From Acinetobacter chengduensis (lineage in GTDB: Bacteria > Pseudomonadota > Gammaproteobacteria > Pseudomonadales > Moraxellaceae): a stretch of 64,000 bases of DNA. The notes beneath the pieces were generated by a model, which worked only from the letters and a program-made list of their open reading frames with translations, made no database searches and had not been told where the DNA came from. The stretch is taken from assembly GCF_003664645.1 (NCBI RefSeq), contig NZ_RCHC01000006.1, forward strand, positions 152,314-216,313, read 5' to 3'. The stretch's first letter is position 1. Each line of letters starts with the position of its first letter. Shown here piece by piece: positions 24,367 through 63,717 of the stretch. The position numbers and the translations under genes are program-made.

Positions 24367-26499
24367 ATGAAATCTTCATCGAAGAACAAGCCAGCCGTGC
24401 CACACGCTCAGTATGATGCTGAGCTTAGAACGACTTTACATACCGCACAGCCCAATGTTGTCGATGACGTTATGCTTCAACAATTTGCCAATAATATGCC
24501 CTTGCCACTGTGGCTACAAACTGCTCAAGGCTCGACTTTTAGTAACAATAAGCTTTGTCAGTTTATCGATTTAGATCTGAACCAGCATCTACCCGAAAAA
24601 TGGCTCAACTATATTCATCCTGAAGACTTCGAACATTTTATTGTCCTTTGGCAAAAAGCACAGCAAACCAAACAAAATTTTAAAAAAGAATGTCGCCTTA
24701 AACATCATCAACTTGGCTATCGTATGTGTGCAGTTCACACCGAATTTCCACACAGCTCTGGTACATTATTTGAATGTTCCGTCAGTTTTATCGATATTCA
24801 TGACAGTTATGAAAAACAACAAGCCTTAAGCCAACAAGTAACAGCACAAAATAAAATGCTGAATGCCAGTATCGACTGCATTAAAATCTTAGCACCCGAT
24901 GGCAACTTAACCCACATGAACCGTTCAGGTTGTCTGGCCTTAGGCGTTCCCATCGCCGAAAAAAAATTTGGCATGCCGTGGTTAAATTTATTACCAGCAG
25001 ACATTCGTGAAGCAGGCTCAGTAGCCTTAGCACAAGCCTGCCAAGGCAAAAATACCCGTTTTGCAGGCAAAAGCTTGAATGGTGAACAAACCCCTCTGTT
25101 TTGGGACAATATTTTGACCCCTATCTTGGACGAAAATGGGGTAACAGAAAGTATTTTATGTGTATCACGTGACGTGACCCAACAAAAAATAGCTGAAAGC
25201 CGTCTACAACAAGTCATTGAACATGATGAGCTGACAGGCCTATTTAACCGTCGCGCCTTTACCCGAATTTTTAAAAAACACCTGCAATATGCGCTCAATT
25301 ATGATCATCAAATTGGCCTAATGCTGATTGACCTCGACTACTTTAAGCATGTCAACGATACGCTCGGTCATGTTGCTGGTGATCATTTATTACATACTCT
25401 CGGTCAACGTTTTAAAAGCTGTTTTTCTGAAGATATTATTGTGTCACGCTTGGGTGGCGATGAATTTGCAATCTTGGTGCCAGAGCTTATCGATGAGCAA
25501 CAGCTGATGGATGTGGCCCACCAAGCTTGGCTACAACTGGATATGCCCATTAGCTACACAGGGCAATTCATTAATGGTGGTATGAGTATCGGCTGTTCGA
25601 TCTACCCGCGTGATGCACAAAGTTCTTCTAACTTAATGAAATGTGCCGATATCGCCCTGAATGATTTAAAGATTAGCGGACGTGGTGGCATACGCATGTT
25701 TAATTTAGACATGTTTAAAGCACTCGAAGCCACGACACGGCAACTTACTTTGGCACGCAGTATCATTAAAAATGATCAAATTGAACCGTTCTATCAACCA
25801 AAGGTTCAGCTACAAGATAGCCGTGTTATTGGCTTTGAAGCCTTACTACGCTGGAAAGATCAACATGGTGTATTGCAATTGCCTTCCCATATTTATGCAG
25901 CCTTCCAAGATTATGACTTGGCCTCACGTATTAGTGAAACCATGCAGAATAAAATCTTCCAAGACATGAATGAATGGCAAGACCAAGGCTTAGAATTACT
26001 ACCTATTTCAATTAATGCAGCACCCGTCGAATTTTTACGAGACGACTATGCAGAAAAAATGCTTTTGCGCTTGAAAAAGTACAAAATTCCACATGATAAA
26101 GTGGAAGTGGAAATTACCGAGCAAAGCTTGTCTGAACGAGGGTCTCATTATGTTATTCGTGCTTTACACCTCCTGAAAAAAGAAGGCTTGAGTATTTCGT
26201 TAGACGATTTTGGTACAGGGCATTCATCACTAACTCGTCTGAGTGACTATCCAATTGACTGTATTAAAATCGATCGTAATTTTGTTGAACGCATGACCAA
26301 AGATTCTTCTGCACTTGCGATTGTCAAAGCGATTACACAGCTCGGCTCTAGTATTTCCATGGATATTTTGGTTGAAGGAATTGAGAATACGGAGCAGCTC
26401 AATGTACTCAAAGACTGCGAATGCCAAAAAGGCCAAGGGTTCTATTTTTATCGCCCTATGAGCTTTGAACATATCAGCGCGCTGTTAGAAGTCCGTTAG
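24367..26499 (+). CDS. PAS-PAS-GGDEF-EAL cyclic-di-GMP protein
   Basis: A 710-residue cytoplasmic protein with no membrane segments. Two PAS-like sensor domains (about residues 35-145 and 155-275) precede a GGDEF domain with an intact RLGGDEF site near residue 360 and an EAL domain starting at GFEALLRW near 490. The EAL metal and catalytic residues look complete (SINAAPVEF, EITEQS, LDDFGTGHSS, IKIDRNFV). Both making and breaking c-di-GMP are therefore possible; the PAS domains presumably set the balance. The signal is unknown. It is divergent from rarA. Confidence 0.92.
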   Translation: MKSSSKNKPAVPHAQYDAELRTTLHTAQPNVVDDVMLQQFANNMPLPLWLQTAQGSTFSNNKLCQFIDLDLNQHLPEKWLNYIHPEDFEHFIVLWQKAQQTKQNFKKECRLKHHQLGYRMCAVHTEFPHSSGTLFECSVSFIDIHDSYEKQQALSQQVTAQNKMLNASIDCIKILAPDGNLTHMNRSGCLALGVPIAEKKFGMPWLNLLPADIREAGSVALAQACQGKNTRFAGKSLNGEQTPLFWDNILTPILDENGVTESILCVSRDVTQQKIAESRLQQVIEHDELTGLFNRRAFTRIFKKHLQYALNYDHQIGLMLIDLDYFKHVNDTLGHVAGDHLLHTLGQRFKSCFSEDIIVSRLGGDEFAILVPELIDEQQLMDVAHQAWLQLDMPISYTGQFINGGMSIGCSIYPRDAQSSSNLMKCADIALNDLKISGRGGIRMFNLDMFKALEATTRQLTLARSIIKNDQIEPFYQPKVQLQDSRVIGFEALLRWKDQHGVLQLPSHIYAAFQDYDLASRISETMQNKIFQDMNEWQDQGLELLPISINAAPVEFLRDDYAEKMLLRLKKYKIPHDKVEVEITEQSLSERGSHYVIRALHLLKKEGLSISLDDFGTGHSSLTRLSDYPIDCIKIDRNFVERMTKDSSALAIVKAITQLGSSISMDILVEGIENTEQLNVLKDCECQKGQGFYFYRPMSFEHISALLEVR

Positions 26500-54375: not shown

Positions 54376-54910
54376 TCCACAAGAAAAAAAGGGTTTCTTT
54401 CAATTCTACCCACACAATTTAGTGTGGGTGGGCTTATCCATTGTTGCCATTATTTTGGATCAATGGACTAAATGGATTGCCAGCACAAGTCTGAATTATG
54501 CAGACCCTGTTCCAGTCCTACCCTTTTTAAATTGGACATTACTCCATAACTATGGGGCAGCCTTTAGTTTCTTGTCCGATGCCGGTGGATGGCAACGTTA
54601 CTTCTTTACCTCACTTGCAGGTTTGGTGTCTGTTATTTTTGTATTTTGGCTCATGCGTATGCCAAAAACCGTGAAAATTTTACCGATTGCAATTGCACTT
54701 ATTTTAGGTGGCGCAATTGGTAATTTAATCGACCGCGTGTCTTTGGGTTATGTGGTCGATTTCATTCATGTGTATTACAACAACAGCCACTTCCCTGCAT
54801 TTAACCTTGCAGATAGTGCCATTACGCTGGGTACCATCTTATTGTTGATTGATACCTTCTTTTTAGAGAAGCAACGTATTCAACGTGCGGAAGCGCAAAA
54901 AAATGACTGA
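54368..54910 (+). CDS. lspA: Prolipoprotein signal peptidase
   Basis: A 180-residue inner-membrane aspartyl protease with four membrane segments. The catalytic Asp residues are D122 (GNLIDRV) and D149 (FNLADS). It removes lipoprotein signal peptides after lipidation, acting on the several lipoproteins encoded in this window. It overlaps ileS by eight bases at its 5' end and fkpB by eight at its 3' end. Confidence 0.96.
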   Translation: MPNPQEKKGFFQFYPHNLVWVGLSIVAIILDQWTKWIASTSLNYADPVPVLPFLNWTLLHNYGAAFSFLSDAGGWQRYFFTSLAGLVSVIFVFWLMRMPKTVKILPIAIALILGGAIGNLIDRVSLGYVVDFIHVYYNNSHFPAFNLADSAITLGTILLLIDTFFLEKQRIQRAEAQKND

Positions 54911-55385
54911 TTTGATTCATCCTAACGAAGAAATTCGTATTGAAGACGGCTCTAAAGTTGATCTTCACTTTTCTGTCGCGATTGAAAATGGCGTAGAAAT
55001 TGATAACACCCGTAGCCGTGCTGAACCTGTAAGCTTAGTGATGGGTGACGGTAGTTTATTGCCTGGTTTTGAAAAAGCATTATTTGGTTTACGTGCTGGC
55101 GACCGCCGTACGGTCAGCCTACCACCAGAAGATGCTTTTGGCCCTTGGAACCCCGAAAATGTACAAAAGTTTGACACTGTAAAATTTGAACAGCGCCCAA
55201 CTGAAGGTCACATGATCGAATTTGAAGACAAAGCCAAACAAAGCCTATACGGCGTGGTCAAAACCGTGGGTGAAGACATCACCGAAGTCGATTTTAACCA
55301 CCCATTGGCAGGCAAAAACATTACCTTTGAAGTGGAAATTTTTAAGGTAACGCCTGCTGGCCAGCAAGGCATTAAAATTATGTAA
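54903..55385 (+). CDS. fkpB: FKBP-type peptidyl-prolyl isomerase (FkpB/SlpA-like)
   Basis: A 160-residue SlyD/FkpB-type isomerase: VDLHFSVAIENGVEIDNTR, PGFEKALFGLRAGDRRTVSLPPEDAFG, and the insert-in-flap region TEGHMIEFEDKAKQSLYGVVKTVGEDITEVDFNHPLAGK. The ATG at 54903 overlaps the lspA stop (ATGACTGA). In E. coli ispH follows fkpB; here it does not, because a terminator and an FMN-reductase gene come next. Confidence 0.93.
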   Translation: MTDLIHPNEEIRIEDGSKVDLHFSVAIENGVEIDNTRSRAEPVSLVMGDGSLLPGFEKALFGLRAGDRRTVSLPPEDAFGPWNPENVQKFDTVKFEQRPTEGHMIEFEDKAKQSLYGVVKTVGEDITEVDFNHPLAGKNITFEVEIFKVTPAGQQGIKIM

Positions 55386-55504: not shown

Positions 55505-56047
55505 ATGAATATTCAAATTATTGTAGGTAGTGTTCGCGAAGGTCGTACCGCGATTAAAGTGGCTGCATGGGTCCAAACACAAATTGAACAGTATGGCTTT
55601 AGCACAGTTCAAACAGAAATTGTTGACTTAAAAGCGTGGGATCTGCCCTTTTTTGCAGGTGCAAACCCACCAATGACGGGTATTTATGACCAACCCAAGC
55701 AACAAGAATGGGCGGCTCAAATTGCCAAGGGTGATGCTTTCATTTTCATTAGTCCTGAATATAACCACGGCTACAGCCCTGCACTCAAAAATGCCTTAGA
55801 TTATTTGGGTAAAGAATGGAACGGGAAACCAGCAGCATACGTAAGTTATGGTGGTAGCAACGGTTCACGTTCGATTGATCAAATCCGCCAAGTTGCAACT
55901 CAGCTTGGACTGGTAGATACCAATGCTGTGGTTGAAATCCGTGATATTTTTGCCCGTAACCGTGCAGAAAATTTTGAAGGCAATGAATTTGATGACAAAG
56001 CCCTAAAAGCTGCTTTTGATAAACTCGTGAAATACGTCAGCGCATAA
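55505..56047 (+). CDS. NADPH-dependent FMN reductase family protein
   Basis: A 180-residue flavodoxin-fold reductase. The FMN phosphate loop is GSVREGRTAIKVAAWV (residues 8-23); SPEYNHGYSPALKNALDYL (near 81-99) and YGGSNGSRSIDQIR are family signatures. It reduces flavins or quinones; the acceptor is not evident. The ATG is preceded by weak GAG. The GacA box of the first Rsm-like RNA begins eight bases after its stop. Confidence 0.9.
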   Translation: MNIQIIVGSVREGRTAIKVAAWVQTQIEQYGFSTVQTEIVDLKAWDLPFFAGANPPMTGIYDQPKQQEWAAQIAKGDAFIFISPEYNHGYSPALKNALDYLGKEWNGKPAAYVSYGGSNGSRSIDQIRQVATQLGLVDTNAVVEIRDIFARNRAENFEGNEFDDKALKAAFDKLVKYVSA

Positions 56048-56054
56048 ATCACAG

Positions 56055-56072
56055 TGTAAGCTTTAGCTTACA
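56055..56072. promoter_or_regulatory. GacA/UvrY box of Rsm-like RNA A
   Basis: TGTAAG-CTTTAG-CTTACA matches the Pseudomonas GacA upstream activating sequence TGTAAG-N6-CTTACA in all twelve defined bases. Its centre is 53.5 bp upstream of the first base of the -10 hexamer TAATAT (56117-56122). Confidence 0.85.
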
Positions 56073-56128
56073 ACAACTGCGGATATTAGCCACTTTTCAC
56101 TTATTCATAAGCTGACTAATATAGGATT

Positions 56129-56264
56129 CATAGAGAGACAGGAAGTCTCCGAAGCCTAAAACAATAATGATAAGCAGGATAAACGCAGGAAGCGTACGGT
56201 ACGACAGGAGTTATACCGCTGAAATGAATCCGAAAAAGCCTCGACAGGATGTCGAGGCTTTTTT
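56129..56264 (+). ncRNA. Rsm/Csr-type regulatory RNA A (CsrA sponge)
   Basis: Predicted about 136 nt. Five GGA motifs: hairpin GAGAC-AGGAA-GTCTC at 56135-56149; an unpaired AGGA near 56177; CGC-AGGAA-GCG at 56184-56194; CGGTA-C-GAC-AGGA-GTT-A-TACCG at 56197-56218; and the terminator AAGCCTCGAC-AGGAT-GTCGAGGCTT (56236-56260) with its T-run. GGA in hairpin loops is the known binding site of CsrA/RsmA dimers, and such RNAs titrate CsrA. The start is inferred from the -10 TAATAT (56117-56122). There is no ribosome site followed by a protein-like frame. Confidence 0.82.
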
Positions 56265-56298
56265 CGTTATACTCTAAGCCACTCGAAACATCTTGGAT

Positions 56299-56694
56299 TT
56301 ACACATTCACTTGAAAACCTAAATCAACATCACATGCCGCTTGACCACCACAAATGCCCCAATTTTCTAAAGGACTTTCTCTCAGAAGAATCAATATATG
56401 GTCAGCTGGAATACCCAATGCCGTTAAATTCATAACTAATTTTTCATATAAACCACGCTTTGCTTCTATAGAACGCCCCGTAAAGCAATCAATGCTAATT
56501 TGCGTAAATAATTCTGGTTGGGTTAAGTGACTAAACACTTGAAAGCGGTGAGGTGCATGGACACACAGACGAATATTACGATCAGTTTGGGGGAGCTGAA
56601 AACATTGCTGTATCGTATCCAAGACTGTATTCAATAAAGCTTCTTCTTCTGCACGGCTATACTGGGTTCGAATATCGATTTGAATTGAAGGCAT
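56299..56694 (-). CDS. Tautomerase-superfamily protein
   Basis: A 131-residue protein with Pro directly after the initiator Met, the catalytic N-terminal proline of 4-oxalocrotonate tautomerase-type enzymes. It is twice the size of a 62-residue 4-OT, suggesting two fused beta-alpha-beta units, as in MIF- or cis-CaaD-like members. Motifs: IDIRTQYSRAEEEALLNTVLD and FTGRSIEAKRGLYEKLVMNL. The substrate is unknown. It lies between Rsm-like RNAs A and B on the opposite strand; the terminator of A points into its 3' end. Confidence 0.8.
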   Translation of the reverse strand: MPSIQIDIRTQYSRAEEEALLNTVLDTIQQCFQLPQTDRNIRLCVHAPHRFQVFSHLTQPELFTQISIDCFTGRSIEAKRGLYEKLVMNLTALGIPADHILILLRESPLENWGICGGQAACDVDLGFQVNV

Positions 56695-56756
56695 GGGGTA
56701 TTGTGCTTTTCTGTTGTTATGATCAATACATTATGAGTTTTTATGATTTATATCAA

Positions 56757-56774
56757 TGTAAGCATTTTCCTACA
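56757..56774. promoter_or_regulatory. GacA/UvrY box of Rsm-like RNA B
   Basis: TGTAAG-CATTTT-CCTACA: one mismatch in the right half-site. Centre 53.5 bp upstream of the first base of -10 TATAGT (56819-56824). Confidence 0.75.
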
Positions 56775-56830
56775 TCATCTGCGGAAATTAACCTCTATAA
56801 GCATTTAAAATTTCGAACTATAGTAAGTTC

Positions 56831-56960
56831 ATAGCCAGACAGGATGTCTGATAAGAAAAATAAAAAATGAAACAACGGCAGGATGCTGAATGGTATGAAA
56901 GGACACATGCCTTTGCAATGAATCACAAAAAAGCCCCGACAGGATGTTGGGGCTTTTTTT
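56831..56960 (+). ncRNA. Rsm/Csr-type regulatory RNA B (CsrA sponge)
   Basis: Predicted about 130 nt. Four GGA motifs, all in loops: CAGAC-AGGAT-GTCTG at 56836-56850; CGGC-AGGAT-GCTG at 56876-56888; GGTATG-AAAGGACA-CATGCC at 56892-56911; and the terminator AAGCCCCGAC-AGGAT-GTTGGGGCTT at 56931-56955 with T-run. The -10 is TATAGT at 56819-56824, followed by TAAGTTCATA-like sequence shared with unit C. This is the cleanest member: every GGA is presented by a stem. Confidence 0.82.
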
Positions 56961-57055
56961 ATTGCGTCTAGCATTGCATTAATTTTTTATAACTCCCCTA
57001 CTGATTATTCTCAATTATTTGTATTTAAATATGTTTTTTTAATTAGTGTTGAATT

Positions 57056-57073
57056 TGTACGTTATGACTTACA
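57056..57073. promoter_or_regulatory. GacA/UvrY box of Rsm-like RNA C
   Basis: TGTACG-TTATGA-CTTACA: one mismatch in the left half-site, the same variant as unit D. Centre 53.5 bp upstream of the first base of -10 TATATT (57118-57123). Confidence 0.75.
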
Positions 57074-57129
57074 AGAGATGCAGAATTTAGCGTCTTCTTT
57101 ACACAGAGAAACACAATTATATTAAGTTC

Positions 57130-57301
57130 ATACCAAACAGGAAGTTTGGAACACAATAAAAACAATACAGCAGGACTGCTGAACATAAAAAATATGCTTA
57201 AGCGCATAACATAAAAGAAAAAACAGACACAGCAATAAAAATGAGGCGATAGCCTGAGTAATAGATTAGAAAAGCCTCAACAGCAATGTTGAGGCTTTTT
57301 T
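57130..57301 (+). ncRNA. Rsm/Csr-type regulatory RNA C (divergent member)
   Basis: Predicted about 172 nt, the longest of the four. Only two GGA hairpins: CCAAAC-AGGAA-GTTTGG at 57133-57149 and CAGC-AGGACT-GCTG at 57168-57181. They are followed by hairpins without GGA (TATGC/GCATA near 57193-57208, AGGC/GCCT near 57244-57255). The terminator AAGCCTCAAC-AGCAAT-GTTGAGGCTT (57272-57297) has AGCAAT in the loop where the others have AGGAN. Probably a weaker CsrA binder or an RNA with an added role. Confidence 0.75.
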
Positions 57302-57516
57302 CATTTCCAGACATTCTAAAGCTGAAGTAGCATCATGGCCAAACTTGCATTTGGTCGTAAATACAAAATAGCTTTATAAAATTTAAAGCGTTTTTATCAA
57401 ACTCTACCTATAATTTGAATATTCTTTACGCAGTTTGCATTAAGGTTTGCTCGCGTATAAGAACTGTCTAAGGAACAGGCAGCAACTATAAAAAAAATGA
57501 AATGAGAGAATAATCT

Positions 57517-58557
57517 ATGCAGCCTCAGCAACAATTTTTAAACGAATACACCAAAGTATTTTCAGCGCCCCCTGAAAACAATTCGAGTACGGCATTGGCA
57601 CAATATATTGGCTCGCACCGTAACGAACTGATGCAACAGTTGCATGATTACGGCATTTTAGTTTTTCGAGGTTACCAAATAGAGCAACCTGAACAGTTCC
57701 AAATGCTGGTAGAGCAATATTTCCAACTCCAGCCGTGGAATGCATTTAACCCCAACATGCCAGGCTGGGCTGCATCATGGATGCGTAAATACAGTGAAAG
57801 TATTCTTGGCGCGGGTGATTACCGACGCTATATCGACCGTAATACAGTACAACTTGGCCCCGTCGAAAACTCAGTACAAGGTCCACATGTTGAAGGAGGT
57901 GTTCGTTCTGAGCGTTCCCGTTATATCGCACTTTTCTGCCAAGAACCATCAACCTATTTGGCCGAAACAGGGTTTAATAACTTAGAACTCATTTGGAATA
58001 AACTCCCCAAAACCTTACAAGAAAAATACTTAGGTGCTTGGAATCATTTTTCTTATGTCTCCGCGCGTAAGCTCAGTATATTTGATCGACTATTATTACA
58101 AAAAAGCCCTTTTAGCATTGAAATGCGCCAAGACAAAAAAGCCAAACTGACCTTGCAACGCTCGCCCCTAGTCATTCACCATCCAGACACTAAAAAACTG
58201 GCCCTACAACCTTGGGCATTTGCCAACAACACCAATCCGTTTGCACATCAAGCCGCGCAAACGTGTTTTTCTAATCGTGGTGACATTGAAATTGATTCCA
58301 CAGCAGATGGCATGCAACTGACATGGGAAATTTACAATCAGCAAGGCGAAAAAATTGAATGGACAGATGAAGAAAAACAACAATTCTTCAATGCCATGTA
58401 TAAAGATGCATTGTTATTGCAGTGGCATAAAGGCGATGTTGCCTTAGTTGATAATGTCAAAATTGCACATTGGCGCATGAATGGCGAGCAAGGCAACCGT
58501 AAGCTGATCCAAATTCAAGCCAATGTATTTAATGCAGACGATCATTATGCAGCTTAA
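57517..58557 (+). CDS. TauD/TfdA-like Fe(II)/2-oxoglutarate dioxygenase
   Basis: A 346-residue clavaminate-synthase-fold protein. It has YGILVFRGYQIE near residues 45-56, the iron ligands H124-x-E126 (GPHVEGGV, with Glu in place of the common Asp) and a distal His near 318 with a following Arg near 328 that would bind 2-oxoglutarate. Such enzymes oxidise small molecules, including amino acids in natural-product pathways and taurine-like sulfonates; the substrate is not evident. The ATG at 57517 is preceded by GAGAG. The gene lies between Rsm-like RNAs C and D. Confidence 0.8.
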   Translation: MQPQQQFLNEYTKVFSAPPENNSSTALAQYIGSHRNELMQQLHDYGILVFRGYQIEQPEQFQMLVEQYFQLQPWNAFNPNMPGWAASWMRKYSESILGAGDYRRYIDRNTVQLGPVENSVQGPHVEGGVRSERSRYIALFCQEPSTYLAETGFNNLELIWNKLPKTLQEKYLGAWNHFSYVSARKLSIFDRLLLQKSPFSIEMRQDKKAKLTLQRSPLVIHHPDTKKLALQPWAFANNTNPFAHQAAQTCFSNRGDIEIDSTADGMQLTWEIYNQQGEKIEWTDEEKQQFFNAMYKDALLLQWHKGDVALVDNVKIAHWRMNGEQGNRKLIQIQANVFNADDHYAA

Positions 58558-58596
58558 GCCATCTGTGATTGATTTTGGCCATTATTAAGATGCGCG

Positions 58597-58614
58597 TGTA
58601 CGCTACAGCTTACA
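58597..58614. promoter_or_regulatory. GacA/UvrY box of Rsm-like RNA D
   Basis: TGTACG-CTACAG-CTTACA: one mismatch in the left half-site. Centre 53.5 bp upstream of the first base of -10 TAATCT (58659-58664). It starts 40 bases after the dioxygenase stop codon. Confidence 0.75.
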
Positions 58615-58670
58615 TGGTTTGCAGAATTTTGCCTCTAGGCAATCCTGCTGATTCAGCATAATCTGTATTT

Positions 58671-58802
58671 ATCAGGAAACAGGACGTTTCCAAACTTAAT
58701 AACAAAAAGAACAAGTTTGTACATCAGGATGTGAGATACGACAGGAGTCATATCTAAAGTTACGAAATATCGAAAAGCCCTATCAGGAAGATGGGGCTTT
58801 TT
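58671..58802 (+). ncRNA. Rsm/Csr-type regulatory RNA D (CsrA sponge)
   Basis: Predicted about 132 nt with five GGA motifs. GGAAAC-AGGAC-GTTTCC forms hairpin 1 (58675-58691); its left arm contains another AGGA. A weak hairpin presents TCAGGA (58721-58732). AGATA-C-GAC-AGGA-GTC-A-TATCT (58734-58755) has the same C/A-mismatch design as a hairpin in RNA A. The terminator is AAGCCCTATC-AGGAA-GATGGGGCTT (58775-58799). A separate long stem CAAACTT/AAGTTTG (58691-58718) has no GGA. Confidence 0.8.
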
Positions 58803-59068
58803 CGTATCTATTGCCTGTGTTTTACCTACCTAAGTTCATATTGAGCATGCATAAAATTGTTTTGCATCTCAGGCTCTATTTTGATGCTTTCAATTGAATG
58901 AACAAGATGAAATACCGAGCCAATTCATCTTATTAAAAAACGACTCTCAACATTTACAATCACGCAGTGCTGGAAAATATTGCTTACAGTCTTTTCATAA
59001 TCACGACATACAGCCTGAAATGCACTTGTTATGGTGAATCAAATGCGTACACCTTTAGGATGAAACAG

Positions 59069-60755: not shown

Positions 60756-62096
60756 TTAAGCTTTCGCAGGCTGTGCCACTTCAACTTTATCTGAATCCGT
60801 GTCATGCATAATCAATGCAACCGCAATTGCTGTAATTAATACAGGCAAACCCACTGCAATAAAGTTAAAGTGCGCTGGCAAGTTCATCCCGAGCAAACCA
60901 CCAATCAAGATTGGCCCAATAATCGCACCCATACGGCCAATTGCAGACGACCAGCCAATCCCTGTCGAACGTACCGCAAGAGGGTAGTACTGAGCAACAT
61001 AGCTATATAACAGCATTTGCGAACCAATAGATGCTGCACCAGCCAAGAACACCAAAATGTAAAGCAAGAACTGATTCGACTGGAAGCCCATTAAGCTCAT
61101 CACAATCGCGCCCATAAGCCCTAAAAACATTAATACAGGTTTCAAATGGAAACGATCCGCCAAGATACCGCCACCCACAATACCTACCACAGCGCCTACA
61201 TTCATCACCATCATAAACATGAGGCTGTTATCCATAGAATAACCCGCAGCCATCATTAACTTTGGCAACCAGCTACTTAGTGCATACATCGTGAGTAAGC
61301 AAGTGAAAAATGCGATCCAGAACAAAATGGTATTTGTGGCACGGCCACGACGGAACAAACTCATTACGCTAGCAGATTCAGGCGTATCGACATGATTTAA
61401 CTCAAAAGTCGTTGTTTCTTGGACCTGAACTGCTGGCGCCAATTGGCGAACGATTTTTCGTGCTTCAGCTTGCTGGTTTTTTTGCACAATAAACGTTAAA
61501 GACTCAGGTAAAAATTTCCAAATTACTGGGAGTAAAAACAGTGGAATACCCGCAATAAAGAACATGATTTCCCAGCCAAAGCTTGGCGTAAACCACGCAC
61601 CCAATAAAGCAGCCATCACACCACCGACTGCATAACCACTAAACATTCCTGTCACTAGGGTACTACGCATCTTCTGTGGCGCATATTCAGAGGTTAAAGC
61701 CACAAGGTTAGGCATTACACCACCAATCCCTAAACCTGCTAAGAAACGCAAAATAGCGAATTCAGTCGGGTTTGATGCGAAGCCACCTGCAAAGGTTAAA
61801 CCACTGAATAGTACAATACAGATCATGATGACTTTTTTACGGCCAATTTTATCAGCCAAGGAACCAAATAACATGGCACCAAACATCATTCCTGCAAGTG
61901 CTGTACTGGCAAGCATACCCGCCTGCATTGCACTTAAGCCCCACTCTTCCATAAGCAAGGGTAAAACAACACCATTAATCGCTAGATCATAGCCATCAAA
62001 TAAGATAATAAGCAAACACCAAGCTAAAACTTTAAAATGGAATTTGGAAAATTTTGCGTGATCAATAATATCATTCACATTCACTGCTTTTGACAT
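60756..62096 (-). CDS. Aromatic acid/H+ symporter, AAHS family (copy 1)
   Basis: A 446-residue, 12-segment MFS protein. Strings LIILFDGYDLAINGVVLPLL, GMMFGAMLFGSLADKIGRKKVIMI, FLAGLGIGGVMPNLVALTSEYAP and the central loop motif match BenK/PcaK/VanK-type symporters (benzoate, 4-hydroxybenzoate, vanillate or muconate). The Asp in FDGYD is the proton-coupling residue known from PcaK. A perfect AGGAGG lies 7 bases before the ATG. The substrate is not fixed, as no ring-cleavage gene is adjacent in the window. Confidence 0.88.
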   Translation of the reverse strand: MSKAVNVNDIIDHAKFSKFHFKVLAWCLLIILFDGYDLAINGVVLPLLMEEWGLSAMQAGMLASTALAGMMFGAMLFGSLADKIGRKKVIMICIVLFSGLTFAGGFASNPTEFAILRFLAGLGIGGVMPNLVALTSEYAPQKMRSTLVTGMFSGYAVGGVMAALLGAWFTPSFGWEIMFFIAGIPLFLLPVIWKFLPESLTFIVQKNQQAEARKIVRQLAPAVQVQETTTFELNHVDTPESASVMSLFRRGRATNTILFWIAFFTCLLTMYALSSWLPKLMMAAGYSMDNSLMFMMVMNVGAVVGIVGGGILADRFHLKPVLMFLGLMGAIVMSLMGFQSNQFLLYILVFLAGAASIGSQMLLYSYVAQYYPLAVRSTGIGWSSAIGRMGAIIGPILIGGLLGMNLPAHFNFIAVGLPVLITAIAVALIMHDTDSDKVEVAQPAKA

Positions 62097-62283
62097 TACT
62101 CACCTCCTGTAAATCTTTATTTGCATTGCACTTTAACTAGCGCCCTTCAGTTTAAAATTTTGTTTTTTAGAACAAAGCTGAAGCCATTTACTAAAGTAGT
62201 TTTGCCTAATATTCACATAATTTATACCACCATAAAAATTCAACATTAGTCTAAGTTTTAGTAATTTATGCCAATTTATGTAC

Positions 62284-62313
62284 AAAAAAACCCCATTTAA
62301 ATGAGGTTTTTTT
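62284..62313 (-). terminator. Terminator of the second AAHS-type transporter gene
   Basis: AACCCCAT pairs with ATGAGGTT (one mismatch) with A- and T-runs, about 40 bases beyond the stop at 62353 on the minus strand, so each transporter gene has its own transcript end. Confidence 0.7.
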
Positions 62314-62352
62314 AATCTACAACAATTTAATTCCAAATATGATTATTCGCAC

Positions 62353-63717
62353 TTATGCACGAATGCTTTTTAAACCATCCTTTGCAGAATCTTGTACATT
62401 TGTCACAGACTGTTTGTCCGTGCGTACAATCAGCGCAACCGCAATCGCAACGATCACCACTGGAAAACCTACCGCCATAAAGTTAATTTGATGTGGTAAT
62501 TCCATGCCCAAAAGCATACCAATTAAAATTGGACCCACAATTGCGCCTGTCCGGCCCACAGCAGAGGCCCAGCCAATACCTGTCGAGCGTACTGTCACTG
62601 GATAGAACTGTGCTACATAGCTATACAGCAAGATTTGCGAACCAATGGCAGATGCGCCAGCAACCGCTACCAAGAAGTAAATAACGGGCTGTGGTGAATT
62701 AAATCCTAATAAAGATAATGCAACAGCGCCAGCCAAACATAAGCTAATAATCACTGGTTTTAAATGAAACTTATCAGCCAAAATACCGCCACCCACCGTA
62801 CCAATAACTGCGCCAATATTCATTGCTAGCAAGAACATTAAGCTACTGCTCATTGAATAGCCTGCTGCCATCATCAGCTTTGGTAACCAACTGCCTAAAG
62901 CATACAATGTTAATAAGCACATAAAAAAAGCTAACCAAAACAACAAAGTATTGATTGATCGCCCTTGTTTAAATAAGCTACTGACAAATGCAGGCTCTGA
63001 CACTTTAGCCTCGCTCAGCACGAGTTTCGCCTGTTTTGGTAGCTCAATCTCCGCATCTAAATGCTGTAAAATTTGGCATGCTTGCTCATCTTTTTGTGCT
63101 TTAACCAAAAAAGTTAATGATTCAGGCAAGAACTTCCAAACAAAAGGTAAAAACAACAGCGGTATACCCGCAATGAAAAACATAATTTGCCAGCCATAGC
63201 TTGGCGTGAACCATGCACCCAATAAAGCAGCCATCACACCACCAACCGCATAGCCACTAAACATGGTCGTCACTAAGGTTGCGCGTAAACGTTGCGGTGC
63301 ATATTCCGAAGTTAAAGCCACTAGATTAGGCAATACACCACCAATACCTAAACCCGCTAAGAAACGAAGTACACCAAATTCAGTTGGGTTTGATGCAAAA
63401 CCGCCAGCAAAAGTAAAACTACTAAATAGCACCACACAAATCATAATGACTTTTTTACGGCCTATTTTGTCTGCCAATGTGCCAAATAACATGGCACCAA
63501 ACATCATGCCCGCTAAAGCGGTACTGGCCAACATACCTGCCTGAACAGCGGTTAATGACCATTGTTGCATCAGTAAAGGAAGTGCCACACCATTAATGGC
63601 CAAGTCATAGCCATCAAATAAAATAATCAACAGACACCAAAACACCACCTTAAAATGAAAAGGTGTAAATTTAGCCTGATCAATCACTTGATTTACATTT
63701 ATTGCATTCTTTTCCAT
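62353..63717 (-). CDS. Aromatic acid/H+ symporter, AAHS family (copy 2)
   Basis: A 454-residue, 12-segment MFS protein, a close paralogue of copy 1. Long identical runs include GYDLAINGV, GRKKVIMIC, GGFASNPTEF, SGYAVGGVMAALLGAWFTPS and LLYSYVAQ. The region after segment 6 (KAQKDEQACQILQHLDAEIELPKQ) is the most different part. AGGAGG precedes its ATG, as in copy 1. It differs in the C-terminal tail (TDKQSVTNVQDSAKDGLKS). The pair arose by tandem duplication. Confidence 0.88.
   Translation of the reverse strand: MEKNAINVNQVIDQAKFTPFHFKVVFWCLLIILFDGYDLAINGVALPLLMQQWSLTAVQAGMLASTALAGMMFGAMLFGTLADKIGRKKVIMICVVLFSSFTFAGGFASNPTEFGVLRFLAGLGIGGVLPNLVALTSEYAPQRLRATLVTTMFSGYAVGGVMAALLGAWFTPSYGWQIMFFIAGIPLLFLPFVWKFLPESLTFLVKAQKDEQACQILQHLDAEIELPKQAKLVLSEAKVSEPAFVSSLFKQGRSINTLLFWLAFFMCLLTLYALGSWLPKLMMAAGYSMSSSLMFLLAMNIGAVIGTVGGGILADKFHLKPVIISLCLAGAVALSLLGFNSPQPVIYFLVAVAGASAIGSQILLYSYVAQFYPVTVRSTGIGWASAVGRTGAIVGPILIGMLLGMELPHQINFMAVGFPVVIVAIAVALIVRTDKQSVTNVQDSAKDGLKSIRA

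What the first reader, a model, noticed from the sequence alone, without database searches (positions are those of the whole stretch)
56055..58802. Array of four Gac/Rsm-type CsrA-sponge RNA genes in one 2.7-kb locus
Four non-coding units (56129-56264, 56831-56960, 57130-57301, 58671-58802) share one design: a GacA-type palindrome, a -10 element, an initial hairpin showing AGGAN, further GGA hairpins, and an intrinsic terminator whose loop is AGGAN in three of four. This matches RsmX/Y/Z and CsrB/C, which bind CsrA/RsmA through GGA in loops. Such RNAs are usually spread around the genome; a tandem family of four inside one locus, interleaved with genes, is unusual. I do not recall a published description for Acinetobacter and cannot check.
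Basis: partly seen in the sequence, partly recalled or inferred. Interest (0 to 1): 0.95.

Follow-up and report, generated by a model that had tools for sequence, protein, structure and literature searches.

The report
Cluster of four CsrA-sponge RNA genes
This Acinetobacter chromosome carries four look-alike units side by side that are predicted to make small RNAs soaking up the global regulator CsrA, and relatives of the same unit match hundreds of Acinetobacter plasmid records, in most of the examined copies at a nearly fixed distance from a likely DNA-recombination site, so plasmids likely tap into the host's master switch.

Summary
Four units (56129-56266, 56831-56960, 57130-57302, 58671-58804) each have a GacA-type palindrome 66-68 nt before the first hairpin's GGA, further GGA and a terminator. 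Against A. cumulans the RNA stretches are 93-95% identical, neighbouring genes 78-88%, spacers 36-79%. Helices covary while the loop AGGA is invariant. CsrA and best-match GacA and GacS relatives are encoded. No Rfam family matches at its cut-off. Best reading: a Gac/Csr-type CsrA-sponge cluster; transcription, GacA control and CsrA binding are untested.

The cluster belongs to a genus-wide family: 60 of 60 same-genus genomes match at E <= 0.01 (59 at 0.001), 3 of 144 others of the order at 0.001. Clusters of 2-4 occur in 27 of 80 loci. One unit, probably at this place, was predicted in A. baylyi in 2017 (PMC5568370).

Most striking: 411 plasmid-collection records match a plasmid copy; in 18 of 24 plasmid units examined a pdif-like Xer site lies 254-268 nt upstream. 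Ten paper searches listed no description, but key papers were not readable.

The parts
56055..56072 (+). GacA-type palindrome of unit 1 (TGTAAGCTTTAGCTTACA, 0 mismatches to the recalled consensus TGTAAGN6CTTACA)
   Evidence: 94% identical in A. cumulans
56120..56125 (+). -10-like element of unit 1 (TATAGG); start of the RNA inferred at about 56129
   Evidence: sequence; TA..T block aligned in 41 units; start not measured
56129..56266 (+). predicted sRNA unit 1: hairpin 1 56135-56149 (loop AGGAA), hairpin 56184-56194 (loop AGGAA), hairpin 56197-56218 (loop AGGA), terminator 56238-56264 (GGA in loop); 5 AGGA
   Evidence: 95% identical in A. cumulans incl. a compensatory change in the terminator
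56299..56694 (-). neighbouring gene, tautomerase fold (PF14552), convergent to unit 1; not part of the RNA cluster
56757..56774 (+). GacA-type palindrome of unit 2 (TGTAAGCATTTTCCTACA, 1 mismatch)
   Evidence: identical in A. cumulans
56819..56824 (+). -10-like element of unit 2 (TATAGT)
   Evidence: sequence
56831..56960 (+). predicted sRNA unit 2: hairpin 1 (CAGACA GGA TGTCTG), hairpin 56876-56888 with GGA in its loop, terminator with GGA in its loop; 4 AGGA
   Evidence: 95% identical in A. cumulans
57056..57073 (+). GacA-type palindrome of unit 3 (TGTACGTTATGACTTACA, 1 mismatch)
57118..57123 (+). -10-like element of unit 3 (TATATT)
   Evidence: sequence
57130..57302 (+). predicted sRNA unit 3: longest (173 nt), hairpin 1 loop AGGAA, hairpin CAGCA GGAC TGCTG, terminator loop without GGA; 2 AGGA + 1 other GGA
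   Evidence: 95% identical in A. cumulans, terminator loop the same there
57517..58557 (+). neighbouring gene, TauD/TfdA-type dioxygenase (PF02668); not part of the RNA cluster
58597..58614 (+). GacA-type palindrome of unit 4 (TGTACGCTACAGCTTACA, 1 mismatch)
   Evidence: identical in A. cumulans
58659..58664 (+). -10-like element of unit 4 (TAATCT)
   Evidence: sequence
58671..58804 (+). predicted sRNA unit 4: hairpin 1 (GGAAAC AGGAC GTTTCC), two further AGGA, terminator loop AGGAA; 5 AGGA in all
   Evidence: 93% identical in A. cumulans
55505..56047 (+). upstream neighbour, NADPH-dependent FMN reductase family gene (PF03358); not part of the RNA cluster

Best explanation
[quoted passage not shown] Shown by sequence: palindrome, constant spacing, covarying hairpins with invariant AGGA, terminators, conservation above that of the neighbouring genes, and csrA plus GacA and GacS relatives in the genome. 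Inferred: the units are transcribed; GacA binds the boxes; each RNA (2-5 AGGA) binds one or more CsrA dimers; when Gac is active the RNAs together titrate CsrA away from its mRNAs. Several units of one design would add up to a large, graded sponge pool. The same unit also occurs on plasmids as pdif-like (XerC/XerD) site + about 230 nt + GacA-type box + sponge-like RNA; that plasmids thereby raise the host's sponge level is inferred.
For: Boxes and spacing. 87 detector hits, 0 in 5.7 Mb shuffled; GGA 67.1 +/- 2.4 nt after the box over the 87. Covariation on 37 RNAs: 91.3% of cells paired, 22 of 24 pairs with changes on both sides (shuffled mean 10.5, 0 of 500 as high), slid structures 35-45% paired; RNAalifold by itself folds hairpins 1, 3 and the terminator. 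Detector rows were chosen to have hairpin 1 and a terminator; hairpin 3 was not required and is 90.7% paired. Of 108 hits of a sequence-only model, 99 have GGA at the expected place and 95 a stem of 4 or more pairs, 8 with shuffled flanks. RNAs 93-95% identical to A. cumulans against 36-79% for spacers and 78-88% for genes. CsrA over the family cut-off, best GacA relative 267 bits (next 95), best BarA/GacS relative 565 bits (next 109). Family in 60 of 60 same-genus genomes at E <= 0.01 (59 by best E at 0.001), 3 of 144 others at 0.001. In A. baylyi, loss of GacA/GacS has a CsrA-dependent effect, and its authors postulate unnamed sponge RNAs (PMC12455638, passages).
Against: No transcript, GacA binding or CsrA binding is shown for any unit. 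The GacA relative is 267 bits against an NCBIfam cut-off of 280, the GacS relative 565 against 890. The box pattern alone is barely over its control in the genome (9 places against 5). Hairpin 2 pairs in only 67% of cells. Unit 3 has few GGA and none in its terminator loop. Of 80 loci, 15 have no match and 4 more only one upstream of fkpB on the other strand, so this place is not universal.
Confidence: 0.84

Rival explanations
1. The units are GacA-controlled (or other LuxR-type-controlled) sRNAs that work by base-pairing with mRNAs, with Hfq, and the GGA loops are incidental.
For: A. baumannii produces over a hundred sRNAs and has an Hfq-dependent RNA network (PMC12802169, abstract start and passages). 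The terminators end in T runs. The A-rich linkers between hairpins are partly conserved.
Against: What is invariant as a run over 37 diverged RNAs is AGGA inside a covarying loop. GGA is at 4.3 per RNA against 2.5 in shuffled RNAs, though the detector itself required one GGA.
Confidence: 0.08
2. The units are cis-acting leaders or 3' ends of the neighbouring genes (FMN reductase, TauD, DJ-1/PfpI), not separate RNA genes.
For: Unit 1 follows the FMN reductase gene by about 80 nt, and units 3 and 4 lie upstream of co-directed genes.
Against: Each unit has its own box, -10-like element and terminator, and units 3 and 4 end at least 160 nt before the next gene. Units of the same design lie next to other genes on plasmids and elsewhere in chromosomes.
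Confidence: 0.03
3. The units are copies of a selfish repeat with no function for the cell.
For: Copy number varies (1-4 per locus, 2-12 matches per genome), and the plasmid version is tied to a recombination-like site.
Against: Changes that keep pairs, unit 1 grouping with the first unit of four more species and unit 4 with A. pragensis, conservation above neighbouring genes. No pdif-like site lies within 600 nt upstream of 74 chromosomal units.
Confidence: 0.03
4. For the plasmid copies only: the RNA is a checkpoint linked to Xer recombination, as Rcd of the ColE1 cer site, rather than a general CsrA sponge.
For: cer is a Xer core with accessory DNA of about 180 bp and encodes the 70-nt Rcd RNA (PMC5357621, passages). 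Here a pdif-like site, 226-240 bp with conserved blocks, and the unit keep a nearly fixed arrangement.
Against: The plasmid RNAs keep GGA loops and the GacA-type box of the chromosomal family, though the right half of the box is more degenerate on plasmids; Rcd binds tryptophanase. The two ideas could both hold.
Confidence: 0.2

Closest known systems
RsmX/RsmY/RsmZ of Pseudomonas (GacA-controlled RsmA sponges), incl. tandem rsmX-1/rsmX-2 of P. brassicacearum
   Same: GacA-recognised sequence upstream, small RNA (rsmX-2 is 110 nt), GGA in hairpin loops; tandem duplicates known, up to 5 rsmX copies in P. syringae (PMC7911923, passages)
CsrB/CsrC of Enterobacterales
   Same: GGA repeats in hairpin loops, CsrA sequestration (inferred here); loop motif resembles CAGGA(U/A/C)G (recalled)
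   Different: CsrB/C are longer with many more repeats (recalled); no Rfam match at cut-off
Predicted RsmA-regulating sRNAs of Acinetobacter baylyi ADP1 (Kulkarni 2006, not held; PMC5568370, section 16 read)
   Same: ADP1 24917-25035, minus strand, between ACIAD0018 and ACIAD0019, same gene geometry (upstream gene co-directed, downstream gene convergent); the unit of A. portensis lies at about 23.4-23.5 kb, minus strand (computed). Very probably the same locus (inferred; ADP1 itself was not compared)
   Different: In the section read: single predictions, no cluster, no genus-wide family, no plasmid copies, no covariation for Acinetobacter
Rcd RNA encoded in the ColE1 cer site
   Same: Small RNA gene physically tied to a Xer recombination site on plasmids (PMC5357621, passages)
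   Different: 70 nt, FIS-regulated, binds tryptophanase; no GacA box or GGA hairpins in the passages seen
RsmQ, a plasmid-encoded CsrA-family regulator in Pseudomonas fluorescens
   Same: A plasmid enters the host's Csr/Rsm circuit (PMC9928087, abstract start in listings and passages)
   Different: A protein regulator; here an RNA predicted to take CsrA away

Membership tests
Gac/Rsm (Csr) sponge sRNAs | Several A(N)GGA motifs shown in hairpin loops | tested here: met
   unit 3 weakest (2 AGGA)
Gac/Rsm (Csr) sponge sRNAs | Separate non-coding gene with own promoter-like element and intrinsic terminator | tested here: met
   (sequence level only; no transcript seen)
Gac/Rsm (Csr) sponge sRNAs | GacA-type palindrome upstream at fixed distance | tested here: met
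   consensus TGTAAGN6CTTACA recalled; a GacA-recognised UAS is quoted in PMC7911923 (passage)
Gac/Rsm (Csr) sponge sRNAs | csrA/rsmA, gacA and gacS in the same genome | tested here: met
   (GacA and GacS by best match, both under the NCBIfam cut-offs)
Gac/Rsm (Csr) sponge sRNAs | Binds CsrA/RsmA and relieves its regulation | not testable with these tools
   -
Gac/Rsm (Csr) sponge sRNAs | Transcription depends on GacA | not testable with these tools
   -
Rfam families of known sponge RNAs (RsmX, RsmY, PrrB/RsmZ, CsrB, CsrC; names recalled) | Match at the family's gathering score | tested here: not met
   0 matches in the window; 14 weak matches up to E = 5, none of these families; 3 matches on 8 further loci, none of these families
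pdif module component (plasmid copies) | pdif-like XerC/XerD site at a fixed place next to the unit | tested here: met
   18 of 24 units at 254-268 nt; 4 of the other 6 have under 270 nt of upstream sequence, 1 has the site 1751 nt away with an annotated transposase gene between, 1 has none in 2.5 kb. Consensus recalled. Chromosomal units: 0 of 74 within 600 nt
Rcd-type Xer checkpoint RNA (plasmid copies) | Transcribed when plasmid dimers form | not testable with these tools
   -

The most novel reading that the evidence does not exclude
Acinetobacter plasmids have captured the host's Gac/Csr master switch as a mobile cassette: a unit of about 450-470 bp made of pdif Xer site, conserved spacer, GacA box and CsrA-sponge RNA, carried on hundreds of plasmids. 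It lets a plasmid raise the host's CsrA-sponge level by gene dosage, perhaps as a Xer-linked checkpoint in the manner of Rcd. The chromosomal four-gene cluster is the ancestral, dosage-tunable form of the same sponge system.
Probability: 0.45. Interest if true: 0.92.

Novelty: new variant of a known kind. Interest (0 to 1): 0.8.

Why it matters
CsrA is needed for growth on rich medium in A. baumannii (PMC12802169, passages), and recent work in A. baylyi postulates GacA-controlled sponge RNAs without naming them (PMC12455638, passages). These units give mapped candidates across the genus, so the missing middle of the Gac-Csr pathway becomes directly testable. If the plasmid copies are active, plasmids, including one in this genome that bears macrolide-resistance genes, carry an RNA device that acts on the host's global regulator, placed next to sites of the kind that shuffle plasmid modules. 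That would be an RNA counterpart of the plasmid regulator RsmQ.

Tried and rejected
Rfam at gathering score and at E up to 5: no sponge family; a 34-bit ctRNA_p42d match at the unit 3 terminator is under its cut-off of 50 and is taken as a terminator look-alike. Coding potential: no sign of it. Chance: rejected. Young tandem duplication of all four: rejected; unit 1 groups with the first unit of other species and unit 4 with A. pragensis, while units 2 and 3 have starred support only with A. cumulans (the bootstrap had not settled). pdif at chromosomal units: 0 of 74 within 600 nt. Plasmid origin of the window's cluster: the 22 plasmid rows of the tree need 2 changes and the window's four units lie outside them; two chromosomal units (A. 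piscicola, A. rongchengensis) fall inside with unstarred support, and one long-branched own unit (C1) is unsure; left out of the tree were the antisense call on L115, the two recD-side units and the C27 unit. Finding the transcript in print: exprReg_29 on pAB2 of ATCC 17978 (PMC5538643, passages) is only a lead; its place was not seen, and the pAB1/pAB2 accessions are not held. A fraction of all Acinetobacter plasmids could not be given: their number in the collection is unknown (613 Acinetobacter records hold a Rep_3 relative). Paper searches; no title or abstract start among the rows listed (lists capped at 8-20 rows; one search had none) describes plasmid CsrA-sponge RNAs or this cluster. 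Kulkarni 2006, Singh 2025 (CsrA in A. baumannii) and Kroeger 2018 are not held, and preprints are not held, so print novelty is open.
Full report
What is there. The window lies in a genome close to Acinetobacter cumulans (product of the FKBP-type gene at 54903-55385, here called fkpB by my reading, 99% identical). Between 56055 and 58804 four units follow one design: an 18-bp palindrome of the GacA type, a -10-like element, a first hairpin with AGGA in its loop, further GGA, and an intrinsic terminator. From box end to the GGA of hairpin 1 there are 66-68 nt in all four. Two ordinary genes lie between them, a tautomerase-type gene (minus) and a TauD-type dioxygenase gene (plus).

Is it more than chance. 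In the window, boxes with at most one mismatch occur at these four places and at one more, 22102. In the whole genome the looser pattern TGTANGN6CNTACA has 9 places and its reversed control 5; by reading the DNA after them, 4 are these units, 3 more precede sRNA-like units and 2 do not, so the box alone is weak evidence. The composite of box, GGA hairpin and terminator gave 87 hits, both strands, in the window, 80 relatives' loci, 5 further loci of the own genome and 7 plasmid loci, and none in 5.7 Mb of pair-shuffled sequence, one strand scanned. Among the 87 are weak ones: an antisense call on L115, two recD-side units with 3 and 1 GGA, and two chromosomal units with 2 GGA. Over the 87 the GGA sits 67.1 +/- 2.4 nt after the box.

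Is it RNA. From the 87 I kept 43 non-redundant RNAs and aligned 37 of them (dropped as weak, odd or antisense: L058 twice, L063 once, L109 twice, L115 once). In a structure of four hairpins, 91.3% of cells pair, 22 of 24 pairs have changes on both sides (shuffled mean 10.5; 0 of 500 as high), and structures slid by 1-3 columns pair in 35-45%. RNAalifold finds the first, third and terminal hairpins without help. The four letters AGGA in loop 1 are invariant. Hairpin 1 and the terminator were required by the detector; hairpin 3 (90.7% paired) was not; hairpin 2 is poorly aligned and only 67% paired. As a check less tied to structure, 108 hits of a sequence-only model built from the four units hold GGA at the expected place in 99 and a stem of at least 4 pairs in 95, against 8 with shuffled flanks. 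Between the window and A. cumulans the RNA stretches are 93-95% identical and the boxes 94-100%, against 73-91% from box to RNA start, 78-88% for the three genes and 36-79% for the spacers; the unit 1 terminator shows a compensatory change.

The rest of the pathway. The genome encodes CsrA (118 bits, cut-off 73), a UvrY/SirA/GacA-type regulator (267 bits, cut-off 280, next best 95) and a BarA/GacS-type hybrid kinase (565 bits, cut-off 890, next best 109). Naming GacA and GacS thus rests on the best match by a wide margin, not on the cut-off.

How far it reaches. A model of box to hairpin 1 from 41 units (38 of the 43, leaving out L058 twice, L109 twice and L115 once, plus three plasmid units) matches 60 of 60 genomes of the same genus at E <= 0.01, with 2-12 matches each; one of them, with 9% contamination, has no match at 0.001. 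The seven one-contig genomes have 4-8. In 145 genomes drawn from the order it matches, at E <= 0.001, the window's genome and 3 of the other 144. Of 80 named loci around fkpB, many of them in the model's training set, 65 hold a match and 61 hold it downstream of fkpB on the same strand: four units in 6 loci, three in 1, two in 20, one in 34; 4 loci have only a match upstream on the other strand and 15 have none. Four of these 15 end within 1.25 kb after fkpB, one of them within 0.4 kb (lengths), so an absence or two may be missing sequence. A. cumulans WCHAc060092 has all four in the same order and nearly the same spacing. On a tree of 97 units, unit 1 groups with the first unit of five other loci (100/99) and unit 4 with the last unit of A. 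pragensis (99/97), so at least part of the cluster is older than these species (bootstrap had not settled).

The plasmid branch. The own genome has matches on three contigs of 10.8-12.5 kb (C30, C31, C27). C30 and C31 encode Rep_3 initiators and MobA/MobL, C30 also msr(E)- and mph(E)-type resistance genes. C27 has type I restriction-modification genes (my reading), was not scanned for replication genes by profile, and its unit lacks GGA in the loops of hairpin 1 and of the terminator, so it looks decayed. A blastn search of the plasmid collection with the C31 unit finds 411 records (407 Acinetobacter, 2 Klebsiella, 1 Escherichia, 1 Citrobacter), 508 places. In the 60 best rows 59 have no annotated feature under the match; in 60 rows spread over the ranking two lie on hypothetical proteins and one record has no annotation. 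Many listed matches begin exactly at the first base of the box (query 37). At least three records of that collection are chromosome-sized, so not all 411 are plasmids. The chromosomal unit 1 itself matches 140 records.

I looked closely at 20 records or contigs: the three own contigs and 17 of the 411 records, chosen from the match lists. The model finds 24 units in them, at least one in each, as expected from how they were chosen. In 18 of 24 a pdif-like site lies 254-268 nt (site start to box) upstream in one orientation. Of the other 6, four have less than 270 nt of upstream sequence, one (pARA4) has the site at 1751 nt with an annotated transposase gene between, and one has none in 2.5 kb. 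At 67 pdif-like sites in 203 kb (0 in 4.06 Mb shuffled) the chance of a site in that slot and orientation is about 0.25% per unit. The stretch between holds a terminator-like inverted repeat and a conserved ATCC...GGA(T/C)A element in 17 aligned units. None of 74 chromosomal units has a pdif-like site within 600 nt upstream or the strict form of that element within 80 nt. Neighbours on several plasmids are toxin-antitoxin, restriction or resistance genes. The pdif consensus is from memory.

How it most likely works. GacA, when phosphorylated by GacS, would bind the boxes and start the RNAs; each RNA would hold one or more CsrA dimers on its GGA loops; together they would lower free CsrA. Several units give dosage and room for different inputs. 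On plasmids, the same device would add to the host's sponge pool in proportion to plasmid copies. All steps after the sequence features are inferred.

Against what is known. It works like RsmX/Y/Z and CsrB/C. By Rfam model it is a member of none of those families. For A. baylyi ADP1 a 2017 prediction lists one sRNA at 24917-25035 between ACIAD0018 and ACIAD0019 (PMC5568370, section 16), very probably the same locus; another paper cites the 2006 prediction for a CsrB-like RNA (PMC12442408, passages). Tandem rsmX genes are known in Pseudomonas (PMC7911923, passages). The rows listed by my ten paper searches show no paper on the cluster, the genus-wide family or the plasmid version. In three dif-module papers the terms non-coding, noncoding and (in two) RNA or (in one) sRNA gave nothing on such an RNA (PMC13141974, PMC6449649, PMC12907356). 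Singh 2025, Kulkarni 2006 and Kroeger 2018 could not be read, so this is not proof of novelty.

A second GacA-box pair. Next to a RecD-like helicase gene lie two tandem units with boxes and a GGA hairpin each (C1 about 299.7-300.3 kb). At least one of them is matched in 15 of 16 same-genus genomes of a 24-genome set; boxes were checked in four of these loci, the own one included. This is probably the recD/ACIAD0400 RNA that mutates during laboratory evolution of A. baylyi, which its authors suspected to belong to the csrA network (PMC11426457, passages); the boxes would support that.

Noticed in passing
own genome C1:299699-300259 (L109:3700-4260, minus; L178): Tandem pair of sRNA-like units with GacA-type boxes beside a RecD-like gene; at least one unit matched in 15 of 16 same-genus genomes. 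Probably the recD/ACIAD0400 small RNA that recurrently mutates in A. baylyi evolution experiments (PMC11426457, passages).
   Followed up: partly
own genome C1:189711-189807 (minus; L010, L158): A further chromosomal unit with box TGTAGGAAATAGCTTACA, diverged RNA and a terminator loop with GGA.
   Followed up: partly
own genome C30, C31, C27 (L107, L108, L169): Small contigs with a unit each; C30 carries Rep_3, MobA/MobL, msr(E)- and mph(E)-type genes; C30 and C31 begin inside the conserved element upstream of the box, which may be why the assembly broke there.
   Followed up: partly
17 plasmid units in L111-L116, L159-L161, L163-L168, upstream of the box: Conserved ATCC...GGA(T/C)A element plus a terminator-like inverted repeat between pdif-like site and box; function unknown, possibly Xer accessory DNA.
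   Followed up: partly
L163:11494 (13.4-kb plasmid of an A. baumannii ATCC 17978 derivative) and PMC5538643: A laboratory strain's plasmid carries a unit; an RNA-seq paper reports one highly expressed plasmid sRNA region in that strain, on pAB2, place not seen.
   Followed up: partly
plasmid collection, NZ_CP104448, NZ_CP077849, NZ_CP064203: Chromosome-sized A. baumannii records filed as plasmids, with 4-5 places matching unit 1.
   Followed up: no
phage collection, 6 records 'Acinetobacter phage MD-2021a'; IMG/VR contigs L182-L184: Matches to a unit or to its third hairpin in records labelled phage or viral; perhaps misfiled bacterial contigs, not examined.
   Followed up: no
L111:874-975, L163:9896-9996, L161:3962-4012: Rfam traJ-II and nhaA-I matches over their cut-offs on Acinetobacter plasmids.
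   Followed up: no
window 60756-63717: Two adjacent, similar transporter-like genes on the minus strand (my reading of the translations).
   Followed up: no
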